From: Cytophagales bacterium
GTDB lineage: Bacteria > Bacteroidota > Bacteroidia > Cytophagales > Bernardetiaceae
Direction of reading: 5' to 3'
NCBI GenBank assembly: GCA_013299045.1
Contig: JAAFJX010000005.1
Location: forward strand, 62,001 to 126,000
DNA: 64,000 nt
Below the pieces are notes generated by a model. The model was not told the origin of the DNA. It did no database searches and worked only from the letters and a program-made list of their open reading frames with translations. The position numbers were made by a program, and so were the translations under genes. Shown one piece after another: positions 1 through 63,087 of this stretch; the stretch's first letter is position 1; each line of letters opens with the position of its first letter.

Positions 1-61
1 CCACCCAAAGCATTTCTTGGCTAAGATTGTCCGCAATAGATTGGCTAAAAGGCTGCTGCAT
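1..61 (-). CDS. N-terminal fragment of an unknown protein, cut by the window edge
   Basis: An open frame on the minus strand begins with ATG at 61 and runs off the left edge without a stop. It reads MQQPFSQSIADNLSQEMLWV, a plausible cytosolic N-terminus with no signal peptide. Only about 20 residues are visible, so neither function nor coding status can be established. It could be a chance open frame. It would be transcribed in the same direction as the secreted protein at 109-888, about 47 bp downstream of that gene's stop. Confidence 0.35.
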   Translation of the reverse strand, partial: MQQPFSQSIADNLSQEMLWV

Positions 62-34277: not shown

Positions 34278-34322
34278 ACCGTCCAAAAAATCTTGTTATT
34301 TTTTGGACGGTTTCTTTTTTTT
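34278..34322 (+). terminator. Strong terminator before the tail-tube gene
   Basis: A 14-bp perfect stem (ACCGTCCAAAAAAT/ATTTTTTGGACGGT) with a 6-nt loop and a T run. It isolates the tail-tube gene from upstream transcription. Confidence 0.9.
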
Positions 34323-34374
34323 ACCTAAAATTCGGAATCTTATTGCGCATAACTACCAACCATGTATTTCTACC

Positions 34375-35082
34375 ATGCCTACCCCCTCTAGCAAGCGTAA
34401 AAAAGTTCAGGCTGCTTCCGCCAAAAATACACCCAAGAAGACAGCCACGCCTAGCGCCAAGCCAAAAACTACAGGAGGAACAGCTAAATCCTCAACAGCA
34501 GCCAGTAAGCCAGCGCCGCCCGCACCCAAAGCAAACAACACAACGAATGCACCCAGCAAAACAACTAAAAAAAGTGCTGCTACAAAAAATACAGGTGTTT
34601 ATTACCCGCCTGTTGGTTTTTGTTTTATTGTTACGATAGGCAAAGCAGGCGAACTACCCCGCATAGACAATCAGTTCAAAGAGGTTACTGGCCTTAGCCT
34701 GGAGCTTGAAACCGAAGACGTGGAAGAGGGCGGCGAAAACCGATTTGTACATAAACTACCTAAGCGTGTCAAAAACCAAGAGATTGTATTAAAGCGCGGC
34801 CTTGTAACCTCTGGTTCTGCTCTAACTGACTGGTGCAAAGAAGTTTTAGAACAGCAAAAATACAAAATGGGCGATATTTCGCTGGACCTCGTAGGTGTGA
34901 AAGATGCCGGAAAAGAGGAATATGAGAGCCTTATGCGCTGGTCGGTTGTAGGGGCTATGCCCGTCAAGTGGGAGATTTCTGATTTCAATTCTACCGAAAA
35001 CGAGATTGTTATAGAAAGTATTACTTTTTCCTACCAGTATTATACCACCGGCAAAACGACTGATAAGATTATAAAGAGTTAG
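34375..35082 (+). CDS. Contractile injection system tail-tube protein (gp19-like) with long N-terminal extension
   Basis: A 235-residue protein. The ATG at 34375 is the first that starts a soluble sequence; 24 upstream codons look non-coding. Residues 1-75 are a disordered Lys/Ala/Pro/Thr/Ser-rich extension. Residues 76-235 are the T4 gp19 tail-tube fold as used in extracellular contractile injection systems: YYPPVGFCFIVTIG, FKEVTGLSLELETEDVEEGGENRF, LPKRVKNQEIVLKRGLV, MPVKWEISDFNSTENEIVIESI. Such proteins stack as hexamers to form the inner tube. No sheath, baseplate or ATPase gene is adjacent; the nearest related gene is the gp25 homologue at 50404. The extension is unusual for a tube protein. 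Confidence 0.85.
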   Translation: MPTPSSKRKKVQAASAKNTPKKTATPSAKPKTTGGTAKSSTAASKPAPPAPKANNTTNAPSKTTKKSAATKNTGVYYPPVGFCFIVTIGKAGELPRIDNQFKEVTGLSLELETEDVEEGGENRFVHKLPKRVKNQEIVLKRGLVTSGSALTDWCKEVLEQQKYKMGDISLDLVGVKDAGKEEYESLMRWSVVGAMPVKWEISDFNSTENEIVIESITFSYQYYTTGKTTDKIIKS

Positions 35083-42191: not shown

Positions 42192-45104
42192 ATGAGAATT
42201 ATTTGTATTCTTTTGATTATTGGGTATTTAGGTGGTAATATAGCCCATGCCCAAACTTGGCAAACTCTAGATAGCTTAGGCCAAATCCTAACCAAGCAAC
42301 AGAAATTTAAAGTGGCCGACTCTGTTTTACAGTTAGCTCTCAATCAAGTAGAAGCCTTGCATGGTAAAGACACAAGCTATGCGAAGGTAGCATTTAACTT
42401 AGGTCTAGTGGCTTATTATTCAGGAACTTACAGCAGGTCAGAGGCGCTTTGGCAAGAAACCAAACAAATTAGAGAAACTTATCTTGGCAAAAAACACCTA
42501 CTTTATGCGAGTTCGTGCAATAGCTTGGCAATTCTGCACCGCGACCAGGGGCTTTATGATAAGGCCGAGCCGCTTTATTTGGAAGCTAAAAATATACGCA
42601 GTGAGGCTCTGGGGCAAAAACACCCCGACTACGCGACCTCCTGCAATAATTTAGCTATTCTATATCGCGCGCAGGGGCTTTACAATAAGGCCGAACCGCT
42701 TTACAAAGAAGCTAAGAATATACGCGGCGAGGTATTGGGAAAAAAGCACCCCGACTACGCGACCTCTTGCAATAATTTAGCAATTTTGCATCATGCACAG
42801 GGCTTTTATGACAAGGCGGAACCACTTTATTTGGAAGCAAAAAGTTTGCGTGAGGAAGCCTTGGGTAAAAAGCATCCTGATTATGCCAATTCTTGTAACA
42901 ATTTAGCAAATTTATACCTCAGTCAAGGGCTTTACACGAAAGCGGAACCGCTTTATTGGGAAGCAAAGAATATTCAACAAGAAGTATTGGGCAAAGGCCA
43001 CCCCGACTACACACACGCTTGTAATAATTTAGCCATTTTGTACGCCTACCAAGGCATTTATGACAAGGCTGAGGCGCTTTACTTAGAAGCCAAGAATATC
43101 AGGGAGGAGGCTTTTGGCAAAAGACATCAAAATTATGCAAGCTCCTGTAATAATTTGGCGAGTTTATACAAAAAACAAGGTCTTTATATTAAGGCAGAAG
43201 CTTTTTATAAAGAAGCACAAAAAGTATGGGAGCAGGGCACTCTAGGCAAAAAGCACCCAGAGTATGCAAGTCTATGCAATAATTTAGCGAATCTTTACAA
43301 AGAGCAGGGCTTTTATGACAAAGCAGAGCCACTTTACATAGAGGGCAAGAGCATCAGAGAAGAAACCTTGGGCAAAGGCCACCCCGAATACGCCTTCTCG
43401 TGCCATAATTTGGCAAGTTCTTACCATTATCAAGGGGCCTATGACAAAGCACAGTCTCTTTATCTAGAAGCAGCTCAGAACAAATACGCTCAAATAAAAG
43501 ATTTATTCCCGCTTTTTTCGGAACAAGAAAAACAGGTCTATTGGCAGTCTGTTAGTCATTTTTTTAGTAGCATAGCAGACCTCGCCCAAGTGTATGTAGC
43601 CGAAAAACCCACTATCATGGCAGACCTCTACAACCAGAGCCTCTTTACGAAAGGGATTATTTTTTCTTCTACTCAAAAAATGAAAAGTGCCATTCTGGAC
43701 AGCCAAGATACCGTTCTGATTAATCAATACAACAACTGGAAAAAACAACGCGAAACTTATACCAAGCTCAGCCAACTATCGCCAGAAGAACAAAAAAAGC
43801 AGAATCTAGACCTCCAAAGCATGAAAACACAAATGAATGATTTGGAAAAGAGCTTATCTAAAAAATCAGCGTTATTTGGCCAGAATGTGCAAACCAAAAT
43901 ATACAGGTGGCAAGAAGTTAAGAATAAATTGCTTAAAAATGAGGTGGCTATTGAAATCATAAAAGCGGATTCAGCCTACATTGCTCTTTTTCTGACCACC
44001 CAAACAGAAAACCATCCTGCTTTCTTTGTCTTTTCTAATGTCAATGAGCTAGAAGGTCAATTTTTAAAGTACTACAAAAATTGCATTGAGTTCAAAATTA
44101 ACGACACGGTTTCTTATGATGTCTTTTGGAAACCAATAGCTGATAAGTTATTGGTTTTAAACCCCAAAGGCTTCAAAAAAATCTATTTTTCGCCAGACGG
44201 GGTCTTTCATCAACTTAGCCTGAACACACTAAAAAATTCTAAAACGAAGGAATTTGTTTTAGAAGAAGCTAATATCCAGCTCATTAGTAGCAGTCGGGAT
44301 TTGATTGAACTGAACAAAAGAAACAAAGATTTGACAGGAAGCTATCAAAGTTATCAGGCTTACTTACTTGGCTATCCTATATATGGAGCAGAGAATGGCA
44401 ATCCTATCCAACAAAACCGCGACCGTGCTGCAGGCTTTTCTAGTGTGCAATCTGCCGTAGGAGTGGCTGGTTCAGTATCAATTTTACCTGGCACGCGGAA
44501 AGAAGTAGAAGAAATTTTTGCGCTTTTCAACAAAAGAAAGCTCAAGGTAAACCTACTTTTGGCCGAAAACGCCACCGAAGAGGCCGTTAAAAACCTCAAA
44601 AGCCCCACCATTTTGCACGTGGCTACGCATGGTTTCTTTATCCCCGAAATCAAGGAGGCGGAAGTCAATGATATACAAAGCGCCATGAACAGAAACCTCT
44701 TGAAAAATCCTTTTATGCGCTCTGGTTTGCTGCTGGCGGGCTGTCAAAAACCCAACCCGGACAAAGAAGATGGCATTTTGACAGCTGAAGAAGTCATGAA
44801 TTTGACGCTTGACAATACAGAACTCGTAGTGATGTCTGCTTGCGAAACAGGCCTAGGGGATATACAAGCGGGCGAGGGCGTTTTTGGCCTCCAACGCGCC
44901 TTTCAGCAAGCGGGCGCAAAGTCCGTGCTGATGAGCCTCTGGAAAGTGGACGACGATGCGACGCAAACGCTAATGACAGAATTTTACACCGCCCTCTTGA
45001 AAGGCCAAAGCAAGCGCGAAGCCTTTAAAACCGCCCAGATGAACCTCAAAAAGCGCTTTCCAGAGCCTTATTATTGGGGCGCTTTCGTGATGGTGGGTGA
45101 ATAG
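42192..45104 (+). CDS. Exported TPR-CHAT caspase-like protein
   Basis: A 970-residue protein with a signal peptide (to about residue 21, ending AHAQ). Residues 60-430 are about nine kinesin-light-chain-type tetratricopeptide repeats of 42 residues (YDKAEPLYLEAKNIREEALGKKHPDYATSCNNLAILY). A helical linker follows (430-690). The C-terminal CHAT domain, a caspase-family peptidase, has the catalytic His in HVATHGFF (near residue 815) and Cys in SACETGLGDIQAGEGVFGL (near 880), then SLWKVDDDAT. Both catalytic residues are present, so it may be active. The signal peptide suggests action outside the cytoplasm. No partner gene is adjacent. Confidence 0.9.
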   Translation: MRIICILLIIGYLGGNIAHAQTWQTLDSLGQILTKQQKFKVADSVLQLALNQVEALHGKDTSYAKVAFNLGLVAYYSGTYSRSEALWQETKQIRETYLGKKHLLYASSCNSLAILHRDQGLYDKAEPLYLEAKNIRSEALGQKHPDYATSCNNLAILYRAQGLYNKAEPLYKEAKNIRGEVLGKKHPDYATSCNNLAILHHAQGFYDKAEPLYLEAKSLREEALGKKHPDYANSCNNLANLYLSQGLYTKAEPLYWEAKNIQQEVLGKGHPDYTHACNNLAILYAYQGIYDKAEALYLEAKNIREEAFGKRHQNYASSCNNLASLYKKQGLYIKAEAFYKEAQKVWEQGTLGKKHPEYASLCNNLANLYKEQGFYDKAEPLYIEGKSIREETLGKGHPEYAFSCHNLASSYHYQGAYDKAQSLYLEAAQNKYAQIKDLFPLFSEQEKQVYWQSVSHFFSSIADLAQVYVAEKPTIMADLYNQSLFTKGIIFSSTQKMKSAILDSQDTVLINQYNNWKKQRETYTKLSQLSPEEQKKQNLDLQSMKTQMNDLEKSLSKKSALFGQNVQTKIYRWQEVKNKLLKNEVAIEIIKADSAYIALFLTTQTENHPAFFVFSNVNELEGQFLKYYKNCIEFKINDTVSYDVFWKPIADKLLVLNPKGFKKIYFSPDGVFHQLSLNTLKNSKTKEFVLEEANIQLISSSRDLIELNKRNKDLTGSYQSYQAYLLGYPIYGAENGNPIQQNRDRAAGFSSVQSAVGVAGSVSILPGTRKEVEEIFALFNKRKLKVNLLLAENATEEAVKNLKSPTILHVATHGFFIPEIKEAEVNDIQSAMNRNLLKNPFMRSGLLLAGCQKPNPDKEDGILTAEEVMNLTLDNTELVVMSACETGLGDIQAGEGVFGLQRAFQQAGAKSVLMSLWKVDDDATQTLMTEFYTALLKGQSKREAFKTAQMNLKKRFPEPYYWGAFVMVGE
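42480..43480 (+). repeat. In-gene 126-bp tandem repeats encoding TPRs
   Basis: Eight to nine units of about 126 bp, each coding a 42-residue TPR. Adjacent units share near-identical stretches such as TGCAATAATTTAGC, so expansion by recombination is likely. Confidence 0.7.
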
Positions 45105-50403: not shown

Positions 50404-50814
50404 ATGGAAAAGGCTTTTTTAGGGCGTGGCTGGAAGTTTCCGCCTACTTTTGACAAACAAACGGGTGATATTAAAATGGCTGAGGAAGAAGACGACATCC
50501 GCGAAAGCCTACGTATTCTACTCGGTACGAGGCGCGGAGAGCGCGTTATGCAGCCTGAGTATGGTTGCGACCTACACCAGCTCGTTTTTGAGGATTTGGA
50601 TAGCACGGCCATTAGCCACCTAAAAAGCGTCATTACCAAAGCCATTTTGTTCTTTGAGCCACGTATCGTCCTCGAAGAGATTGAAATTCGGTTTGATAGT
50701 CAAGATATTGGCTTGTTGCACATTATTCTGCATTATACGGTGAGCCTCACCAATACACGTACCAATATGGTTTATCCTTTCTACTTGCTGGAAGGCACTG
50801 ACATTGTGGATTAA
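50404..50814 (+). CDS. GPW/gp25-family baseplate protein of a contractile injection system
   Basis: A 136-residue soluble protein. It opens FLGRGWKFPPTF, followed by EEDDIRESLRILLGTRRGERVMQPEYGCDLHQLVFE, the defining core of the T4 gp25/phage W lysozyme-like family. In phages and injection systems gp25 joins the baseplate wedge to the sheath start. The DIRESLRILLGTRRGERVM block, with its Arg cluster, is the most conserved part. It stands alone between nrdB and rfbC, about 15 kb from the tail-tube gene at 34375, with no phage genes around. Confidence 0.88.
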   Translation: MEKAFLGRGWKFPPTFDKQTGDIKMAEEEDDIRESLRILLGTRRGERVMQPEYGCDLHQLVFEDLDSTAISHLKSVITKAILFFEPRIVLEEIEIRFDSQDIGLLHIILHYTVSLTNTRTNMVYPFYLLEGTDIVD

Positions 50815-61239: not shown

Positions 61240-63087
61240 ATGAACCAGTTTGTCAATTTTTTAGTCAAAAAAATAGTTCTAGCAATCGTCATTGGCGTTT
61301 TTTGGCCAACTCTGCCGCTTTATGGACAAACGTCAGATACGGTCAAGACGCAGCTACAGCGCTATTTGGACGAAGCCAAAAAGAAAAAAGAAGACGAACT
61401 TAAACGACAACAAGCCCTTGATGCCAAAAGGAAAGAACAACTAACCTCCAAAGACCAAAAAATAGAACAGCTTAGCCAAGAGTTGCTCAAAAAGAAAACA
61501 GATACTGTAGTGGTTACTGTGCAGTTGCCTGCTCCTGAGCCTAACGTAGAGATAATGCTCCCAGACCGTGAAAAAGGCTTTATTGATACGCTTGCTTACG
61601 TCAAACGTCTAATGGTTAGTAAAACTATTGCTTCGGGTGGCAGCAAAGGCAGCAGCGAAACCTACTGGACGCGCATGAAAGAGGTTAAGTTGGACGGTAC
61701 ACACAGACGACGCTATCAACGCAGTAGCGATAAAATAGTTTTTGGCTGGCATCCTTACTGGATGGGTGAGGCTTACAAAAGTTATAATTTTTCTTTGCTC
61801 TCAATCGTTTCGTATTTTTCTTATGAACTAAACGCCCGAACAGGAGATTATAACACGGTACACCAGTGGGCTACCACTTCTTTGATTGACTCGGCCAAAA
61901 AATACAACACCAAAGTTTTGCTGAGTGTAACCAATTTTGGGGCGGTTAATAATGCCACTTTTCTGGGCAATATGGAAGCTCAAGCCACTTGCATTCGCAG
62001 GCTCAAAGACCTGTTGCGTTTGCGTGGTGGCGACGGCGTAGATATTGACTTTGAGGTGATTCCAAAGGCATACAGAAAACAGTTCAATAATTTTGTTGTA
62101 GATTTGGCCACTAGCCTCAAGCGAGAGAACCCACGCTATTTGGTATCTCTCTGTATGCCAGCCGTAGACTTGGATAGCATCTATGACGTACAACAATTGC
62201 TGCCACACGTGAATCACTTTGTCATTATGGGCTACGAATTTTATGGTGCAAATAGCCGTGAAGCTGGCCCCATTGCGCCCGTTGCGAGCGGTGGCTATTG
62301 GTGGAAGTATAACTTGGAACTTTCTGTAAAGGACTATACCACAGCGGGCATTCCTCCCAACAAAATTATTATGGGCCTACCCTACTACGGTGTGGAGTGG
62401 CAAACTTATGATTTGAAAGTGCCTTCGGCTACCCGAAAGTTTATAAAATATTTGACCTACAGCCAAATACAAAAAGAGCATGGGCCTATCTTTTGCTGCG
62501 AAGACGAAGTTAGTATGAGCCGTTATTTTCTCTATCGTATAGGGAATGACTACCGCCAAATCTGGTTTGAGGACTCCACCTCCCTGTCCAAAAAGTACGA
62601 TTGGGTTCTTTCAAAAAAACTCGGTGGGGTAGGTATCTGGGCGCTTGGCTATGATAACGGCTACAATGACCTCTGGCACTTGCTGGCTGCTAAATTTACT
62701 TCGCAAGAAGCTGCCACAAGCTCAAAAGTCAGCCAGCGGGGCTTCTTAATGCGCTCGCCTAGCTCTTTCTTGGCCATCTTTCGTAACCCTAAGGCTTTTT
62801 TGAAGCGCCCTGCCAGTTTAGTTACGATTATAGGCACTCTGCTTGGTTTAAAACTGATGGCTATTGTGGTACTTATTCGCTTTGGCTGTCGTATGAAGCA
62901 AAACTTAACTATGGGCTTGCGGGCGGGTATTTTTGCTATGGCGGCTACGCTTGTGGCCTTCATCATGTTCTCTCGGAACTGGATAGACGTGCGTATGCTT
63001 ATCATGTTTTTTGTAGGGGTGGTTGTGGCAGGCATTGCGTTCTACATCTTTGCGCTAACCCGCCTCACCGAAAGAGAAATGCCTTGA
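61240..63087 (+). CDS. Membrane-anchored glycoside hydrolase family 18 protein
   Basis: A 615-residue protein. The ATG at 61240 (preceded by AAGGA) is chosen over a TTG at 61231. An N-terminal membrane segment (residues 10-30) leads to a coiled coil rich in Lys/Glu (40-95, DEAKKKKEDELKRQQALDAKRKEQ). Residues 165-490 are a GH18 TIM barrel, with VFGWHPYWM, the catalytic DGVDIDFE (DxxDxDxE) near residue 270, MGYEFYGANSREAGPIAPV and GLPYYGVEW. Two to three helices close the C-terminus (525-612). Chitin or peptidoglycan-like polymer hydrolysis at the membrane surface is expected. Confidence 0.88.
   Translation: MNQFVNFLVKKIVLAIVIGVFWPTLPLYGQTSDTVKTQLQRYLDEAKKKKEDELKRQQALDAKRKEQLTSKDQKIEQLSQELLKKKTDTVVVTVQLPAPEPNVEIMLPDREKGFIDTLAYVKRLMVSKTIASGGSKGSSETYWTRMKEVKLDGTHRRRYQRSSDKIVFGWHPYWMGEAYKSYNFSLLSIVSYFSYELNARTGDYNTVHQWATTSLIDSAKKYNTKVLLSVTNFGAVNNATFLGNMEAQATCIRRLKDLLRLRGGDGVDIDFEVIPKAYRKQFNNFVVDLATSLKRENPRYLVSLCMPAVDLDSIYDVQQLLPHVNHFVIMGYEFYGANSREAGPIAPVASGGYWWKYNLELSVKDYTTAGIPPNKIIMGLPYYGVEWQTYDLKVPSATRKFIKYLTYSQIQKEHGPIFCCEDEVSMSRYFLYRIGNDYRQIWFEDSTSLSKKYDWVLSKKLGGVGIWALGYDNGYNDLWHLLAAKFTSQEAATSSKVSQRGFLMRSPSSFLAIFRNPKAFLKRPASLVTIIGTLLGLKLMAIVVLIRFGCRMKQNLTMGLRAGIFAMAATLVAFIMFSRNWIDVRMLIMFFVGVVVAGIAFYIFALTRLTEREMP

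What the first reader, a model, noticed from the sequence alone, without database searches (positions are those of the whole stretch)
34375..35082. Orphan injection-system tail-tube protein with a long basic low-complexity extension
The C-terminal 160 residues are a clear gp19-type tube protein of the extracellular contractile injection type, but no sheath, baseplate, spike or ATPase gene is beside it, and a strong terminator isolates it. The 75-residue Lys/Ala/Pro/Thr-rich N-terminus is not part of the usual tube fold and would face the lumen or the outside of a stacked tube. Known scattered layouts, as in thylakoid-anchored systems of cyanobacteria, suggest a dispersed system here.
Basis: partly seen in the sequence, partly recalled or inferred. 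Interest (0 to 1): 0.75.

Follow-up and report, generated by a model that had tools for sequence, protein, structure and literature searches.

The report
Scattered injection-machine gene with charged tail
This gene encodes the starter ring of a phage-tail-like injection machine whose nearly full parts list is present in this bacterium but broken up over about fourteen places in the genome instead of one cluster, and the protein has gained a conserved, purely positive, floppy tail.

Summary
Window 34375-35082 is an intact single-copy gene: a gp19/CIS tube domain (Pfam E 8.5e-33) behind a 72-residue K/A/T/P/S-rich leader with 16 basic and no acidic residues. It is not the main tube protein. Structure hits, NCBIfam and a tree (100/100 split) make it the Alg5/Cis5-type tube initiator.

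The dispersed-system guess is right. The same 4.06-Mb genome has one sheath, main tube, cap adaptor, cap, plug, Alg7, spike, gp25, Alg11, Alg12, tape measure, AAA+ ATPase, fibre-like protein and GH18. These lie singly at about 13-14 places on 8 contigs; only cap adaptor-sheath-tube stay together. There is no second, compact cluster. No PAAR protein was found; three eCIS_core (cargo-type) proteins were. A congener is also scattered, with strong amino-acid conservation, and keeps the same acid-free tail. A genome of another family is scattered too, without the tail; a same-family, other-genus relative keeps a mostly compact cluster.

The cyanobacterial precedent is wrong (Anabaena's cluster is compact). 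Cardinium, with 16 genes in five regions, is the real one.

What the tail does is unproven. I favour electrostatic packing of, or cargo docking in, the acidic tube base.

The parts
34375..35082 (+). Alg5/Cis5-type tube initiator (inner tube adaptor), 235 aa, the only copy in the genome
   Evidence: PF06841 E 8.5e-33; best PDB chains 7aeb_Y and 7b5h_AM; CIS5_fam E 6e-20 against CIS1_fam E 1e-3; tree split from main tubes 100/100; only two gp19 genes in the genome
34375..34590 (+). N-terminal 72-residue low-complexity tail, +16, no D/E (K15 T14 A14 P10 S9 in the first 75 residues)
   Evidence: conserved in length and charge in congener L058 (77 aa before YYPP, 15 K/R, 0 D/E, 44% identity over the tail)
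34591..35079 (+). gp19-fold core
   Evidence: 68% identity to the congener core
34278..34322 (+). Intrinsic terminator of the upstream gene (14-bp stem plus T run), separating the tube-initiator gene from it
   Evidence: -18.6 kcal/mol, z -5.2
50404..50814 (+). gp25/TssE-type baseplate wedge (Alg9-type sheath initiator), 136 aa, alone between nrdB-like and rfbC-like genes
   Evidence: PF04965 E 1e-24; 53-58% identity to gp25 inside compact CIS clusters of G080 and G103
61240..63087 (+). GH18-family protein homologous to the gene heading the CIS cluster in G080 and G103
   Evidence: 51% identity over 448 aa to the G080 cluster gene; Pfam GH18 on that homologue
1..61 (-). 5' end of the CIS AAA+ ATPase gene (rest lies left of the window, C39:60715-62061)
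   Evidence: 42% identity over 440 aa to the G103 cluster ATPase, E 2.7e-102; L109:4715-6091

Best explanation
The gene makes the tube-initiator ring (Alg5/Cis5 type) of an AlgoCIS/tCIS-like contractile injection system, complete apart from a PAAR tip, whose operon has been broken up into about 14 loci, nearly all single-gene, while all structural genes stay under purifying selection. Shown: identity of the domain, single copy, presence and positions of the other parts, scatter in two species of the genus, conservation. Inferred from solved relatives: six copies form a ring between the main tube and Alg7/spike and start tube polymerisation. Inferred, least certain: each ring carries six flexible tails, about +16 each, placed at the base of the tube. 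In solved relatives the lumen wall is acidic. I favour a lumen-side electrostatic role, packing the basal lumen and/or docking cargo; six tails would fill roughly 5-6 nm of a 3.6-nm lumen at full packing. The parts must be co-ordinated by separate promoters; no shared regulator site was found. The confidence given is for the identity and the dispersed, functional system; for the lumen-side role of the tail alone it is about 0.4.
For: Domain identity. Whole-genome inventory, one copy each: sheath and tube C9, gp25 C39, cap C47, spike C47, Alg11 C70, Alg12 C36, ATPase C39, Alg7 C36, tape measure C59, plug C42, fibre C53, GH18 C39; plug confirmed against AlgoCIS Alg6; spike and Alg11 closest to AlgoCIS, 9rce and tCIS chains. 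Congener G119/L058 also scattered. Synonymous sites saturated (pS 0.72-0.85) with aa identity from 51% (tape measure) to 97% (tube). Tail length and charge conserved, zero acidic residues in both species. Cargo-type eCIS_core proteins present. Split CIS genes known to be expressed in Cardinium. Lumen negative in AlgoCIS and tCIS.
Against: No PAAR tip protein found by tblastn. No expression or particle data. The tail is absent from the scattered system of G081 and from most relatives, so it is neither required for a CIS nor tied to the scatter. No shared upstream motif exceeded shuffled controls.
Confidence: 0.85

Rival explanations
1. The tail points outward, into the gap between the hub/tube and the baseplate wedges or first sheath ring, and acts as an electrostatic staple that steadies the baseplate, as extra domains of other tube initiators do.
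For: In AlgoCIS the LysM extension of the second tube initiator Alg7 reaches out to the wedges (PMC8894135). In phage Mu the extra domain of the tube initiator helps join hub and wedge (PMC11915804). Several other Cytophagales carry long extensions at the C-terminus of Alg5 instead.
Against: The known outward parts are folded domains or helices at the C-terminus; this tail is N-terminal, low-complexity and without acidic residues.
Confidence: 0.35
2. The scattered genes are decaying relics of a lost system.
For: Broken operon; no PAAR gene found.
Against: The genes are full open frames; aa identity to the congener is 97% (tube) and 90% (sheath) with synonymous sites saturated. The set is complete apart from PAAR, and the same scattered set persists in a second species with mostly other neighbours.
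Confidence: 0.04
3. The scatter is an artefact of assembly or binning.
For: The genome is a 79-contig draft.
Against: Completeness 99.8%, contamination 0.01%. Genes lie inside contigs of 73-256 kb among ordinary chromosomal genes; three lie fully in this one contiguous window plus the ATPase at its edge. G119, an independent assembly, and G081 are also scattered.
Confidence: 0.02
4. The basic tail is a cargo-leader mimic or nucleic-acid-binding tail rather than a structural feature, for example helping the ATPase feed cargo into the nascent tube.
For: PVC cargo leaders are 50-70-residue disordered N-termini (PMC11495950), about the size of this tail; eCIS_core proteins here also begin with K/A/S-rich stretches.
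Against: Resemblance of composition only; the leaders of the cargo candidates here contain acidic residues. Pull-down data are lacking.
Confidence: 0.2

Closest known systems
AlgoCIS of Algoriphagus machipongonensis (Alg5 tube initiator; PDB 7aeb/7aef)
   Same: Best sequence match for the core; the genome also holds homologues of the plug Alg6, Alg7, spike Alg8, gp25, Alg11, ATPase and cap
   Different: AlgoCIS is described as a gene cluster and its Alg5 has no such tail (the match begins at chain residue 3); here the genes are at about 14 places and the initiator has a 72-aa basic tail
Thylakoid-anchored CIS of Anabaena (All3323 = Cis5; PDB 7b5h)
   Same: Second-best match for the core; similar part set
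   Different: Compact cluster all3313-all3327, so it is not a scattered precedent; thylakoid anchoring cannot apply to a Cytophagales bacterium
Cardinium hertigii AFP-like system / T6SSiv of Amoebophilaceae
   Same: Same order; CIS genes split over several genome regions (16 genes in five regions, PMC3486910); expressed (PMC8831229)
   Different: Here nearly every gene stands alone (about 14 loci); Amoebophilaceae are obligate intracellular with genomes near 1 Mb, this is a 4-Mb genome
Solved CIS of PDB 9r9h/9rce (publication not found in the held library)
   Same: Closest sheath (E 1e-168) and a close spike and Alg11
   Different: Organism and gene layout not determined here; its Alg5-type chain (9rce_I, 158 residues) has no long tail

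Membership tests
CIS tube initiator (Alg5/Cis5/Afp5 family) | gp19-type tube fold closer to Alg5/Cis5 than to Alg1 | tested here: met
   7aeb_Y 5e-34 and 7b5h_AM 7e-28 against Alg1-type 7adz 1e-8; CIS5_fam 6e-20, below that model's strict 260-bit cut-off, against CIS1_fam 1e-3; tree split 100/100
CIS tube initiator (Alg5/Cis5/Afp5 family) | Lies next to the main tube gene in the cluster | tested here: not met
   Main tube is on contig C9, this gene on C39. Position is usual, not defining; scattered relatives also break it
CIS tube initiator (Alg5/Cis5/Afp5 family) | Ring between tube and Alg7/spike in the particle | not testable with these tools
   Needs particle structure; AlphaFold2 model failed
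eCIS / AlgoCIS-like contractile injection system | Core parts present: sheath, tube, tube initiators, spike, gp25, baseplate J and wedge proteins, AAA+ ATPase, tape measure, cap | tested here: met
eCIS / AlgoCIS-like contractile injection system | PAAR-type spike tip | tested here: inconclusive
   Not found by tblastn with the G103 PAAR protein; a divergent one is not excluded
eCIS / AlgoCIS-like contractile injection system | Core genes in close proximity, as eCIS surveys require (at least ten core genes in one putative operon, PMC8213781) | tested here: not met
   About 14 loci on 8 contigs; a detection criterion of surveys rather than a property of the machine
eCIS / AlgoCIS-like contractile injection system | Released extracellularly rather than membrane-anchored | not testable with these tools
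   Mode of action (eCIS, T6SSiv-like or cytoplasmic) cannot be read from these data
Prophage or phage tail | Phage replication, head or packaging genes nearby; relatives in viral contigs | tested here: not met
   Neighbours are housekeeping genes; no relative among IMG/VR contigs

The most novel reading that the evidence does not exclude
A Cytophagales lineage maintains a working contractile injection machine with almost no gene cluster: some 15 parts of one giant complex are made from about 14 independent transcription units, in both species of the genus examined, and the tube initiator has evolved an acid-free charged tail that plugs or loads the acidic tube base, a part not seen in solved systems.
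Probability: 0.4. Interest if true: 0.75.

Novelty: new variant of a known kind. Interest (0 to 1): 0.6.

Why it matters
At least one published eCIS survey requires at least ten core genes in one putative operon (PMC8213781), so such a filter would miss this system. Counts of which bacteria carry contractile injection systems may therefore be too low. It also bears on whether operons are needed for building large machines: two species of this genus, and one genome of another family, appear to keep a nearly full part set without one. The tail gives a concrete, testable addition to the tube-initiator ring at a site where cargo and plug meet.

Tried and rejected
Main tube protein: rejected. Prophage remnant: no phage genes nearby and no viral relatives. 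Second compact cluster elsewhere: only one sheath, one spike, one gp25 and two gp19 genes found. Translation from the upstream TTG at 34303: it lies inside the terminator, so not favoured. Shared upstream motif for the scattered genes: word counts did not clearly exceed shuffles; a promoter-like WWWTTGC box is in 7 of 12 CIS upstream regions against 20 of 98 background, but this was chosen after looking and is weaker in G119 (3 of 9). PF13946 was queried by mistake as the eCIS cargo family; PF13699 is the right one. Order-wide survey scored only two places per genome, so it gives pairwise distances only: 40 genomes within 50 kb, 5 far apart on one contig, 15 on different contigs, some of these from fragmented assemblies (a few Alg11 rows were labelled 'spike' in that script, which does not affect the distances).

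Full report
What is there. The ORF at 34375-35082 (+) encodes 235 residues. Residues 82-223 match Pfam PF06841 at E 8.5e-33. Ahead of the domain lies a low-complexity stretch of K, T, A, P and S with 16 basic and no acidic residues. The upstream gene ends in a strong intrinsic terminator (-18.6 kcal/mol, z -5.2) about 50 bp before the ATG.

Which tube-type protein. Against solved structures the best hits are 7aeb_Y (5e-34) and 7b5h_AM, All3323 (7e-28); the corresponding main-tube chains of those two particles score 1e-8 and 2e-6. NCBIfam gives CIS5_fam (inner tube adaptor) 6e-20 and CIS1_fam 1e-3, both below those models' strict cut-offs. In a tree of 35 relatives, main tubes and Alg5-type proteins separate with 100/100 support and this gene falls with the Alg5 type. 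AlgoCIS work names Alg5/Alg7 the tube initiator that joins the tube to the spike (PMC8894135).

The rest of the machine. The window lies in a 4.06-Mb genome, 79 contigs, 99.8% complete. Searches found one sheath next to one main tube on C9, preceded by a 365-aa homologue of the protein that precedes the sheath in relatives, probably the cap adaptor (25% identity; no PDB match, so this name rests on position and similarity only). Others stand alone: gp25 at C39:112 kb, which is window 50404; Pvc16_N cap at C47:25 kb; spike at C47:76 kb; Alg11 C70, Alg12 C36, ATPase C39:61 kb, Alg7 C36:75 kb, tape measure C59; fibre-like C53 and plug C42. The plug is weak by tblastn (E 1e-4) but matches AlgoCIS Alg6 at 4e-6 over its full 55 residues. 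A GH18 gene like the one heading the cluster in two relatives is at window 61240. Each was found once, so this is the only set. A PAAR protein was not found. Three eCIS_core proteins, the usual cargo mark, are on C42, C53 and C50.

Layout in relatives. In G103 and G091 the genes form one cluster. In G080 (same family, other genus) cap through Alg11 and fibre are together while Alg12, tape measure and ATPase are on other contigs. The congener G119, whose tube-initiator locus is L058, a MAG named Cytophagales bacterium PH2015_06S_41_96, is scattered: sheath and tube C31, spike and Alg5 on C35 24 kb apart, gp25 C11, ATPase C10, GH18 C36, fibre C29, tape measure C47. Most neighbours differ from the window's genome; the tape measure keeps a menA-like neighbour (by eye) in both. 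G081, of another family, is scattered too and also keeps a cap-adaptor-like gene, sheath and tube together. A survey of 311 genomes of the order, limited to two scored places each, found 40 with the two pieces within 50 kb and 20 apart, some because of fragmented assemblies. Published precedent in the order: Cardinium has 16 AFP-like genes in five regions (PMC3486910). The Anabaena system is one cluster (PMC8894136).

Is it alive? Between the two congeners synonymous sites are saturated (pS 0.72-0.85) while amino-acid identity is 97% for the tube, 90% sheath, 83% gp25, about 78% for Alg7, spike, ATPase and GH18, and 51-61% for the rest. That is purifying selection on the whole set. The Alg5 core is 68% identical and the tail 44%, yet the tail keeps its length (75 and 77 residues before YYPP) and its 15-16 basic, zero acidic residues. 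This suggests selection on charge and flexibility rather than sequence; with two species it is suggestive only.

How it may work. From solved relatives, six copies form a ring that starts the tube. The lumen wall is acidic in AlgoCIS and the Anabaena system. Six tails of +16 would hold about +96 at one level; at full packing they fill 5-6 nm of a 3.6-nm lumen. Other Cytophagales carry low-complexity extensions on the C-terminus of the same protein, from Lys/Pro/Glu-rich (G088, 272 residues) to Ala/Asp-rich (G047), and G103 has a 16-residue N-terminal version with three lysines. Extending this ring has thus happened more than once, but with differing charge.

Co-ordination. No shared upstream word beat shuffles. 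A promoter-like WWWTTGC box is commoner upstream of CIS genes than of others here (7/12 against 20/98), but it was picked after inspection and may be the ordinary promoter.

Verdict. Real, conserved, and correctly guessed to be part of a dispersed system; role refined to tube initiator; tail real but of unknown function. New variant of a known kind.

Noticed in passing
window 61240-63087; L045:7894-9783; L049:2648-4423: A GH18-family protein heads the CIS cluster in two relatives and its homologue is kept, scattered, in this genome, its congener and G081: a possible unrecognised CIS accessory (wall or glycan enzyme).
   Followed up: partly
L025:2043-3368 (G088), L026:541-1329, L027:2078-2869, L023:760-1407: Alg5-type tube initiators in other Cytophagales families carry C-terminal low-complexity extensions of 30-272 residues (one with repeated KKPEEKKPDPKKPDVV units), differing in charge.
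   Followed up: partly
G081 (L093, L097 and hits): A genome of another Cytophagales family has a fully scattered CIS with the same surviving triad cap adaptor-sheath-tube, but no tail on the initiator.
   Followed up: partly
L111 (C42), L112 (C53), L113 (C50): Three eCIS_core-domain proteins with K/A/S-rich N-terminal stretches, candidate cargo; one lies 13.5 kb from the plug gene.
   Followed up: partly
window 42192-45104; L004:3750-9969; L011:15952-18987; L055:6-641: Several large TPR-CHAT-like proteins (by eye) are scattered through the same genome, some near CIS genes (after the main tube gene on C9 and upstream of Alg7).
   Followed up: no
L011:3373-3819: An IS-type transposase fragment (by eye) about 1.5 kb from the lone cap gene; insertion elements might have helped scatter the operon.
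   Followed up: no
C39 60-124 kb (window 1-63087): Four CIS loci (ATPase, Alg5, gp25, GH18) fall within about 63 kb of one contig, not in ancestral order: possibly a loosened remnant of a once closer cluster. Not tested against contig lengths.
   Followed up: no
window 34340-34347 and other CIS upstream regions: A WWWTTGC box about 30-60 bp before many scattered CIS genes, 7/12 against 20/98 background, post hoc.
   Followed up: partly
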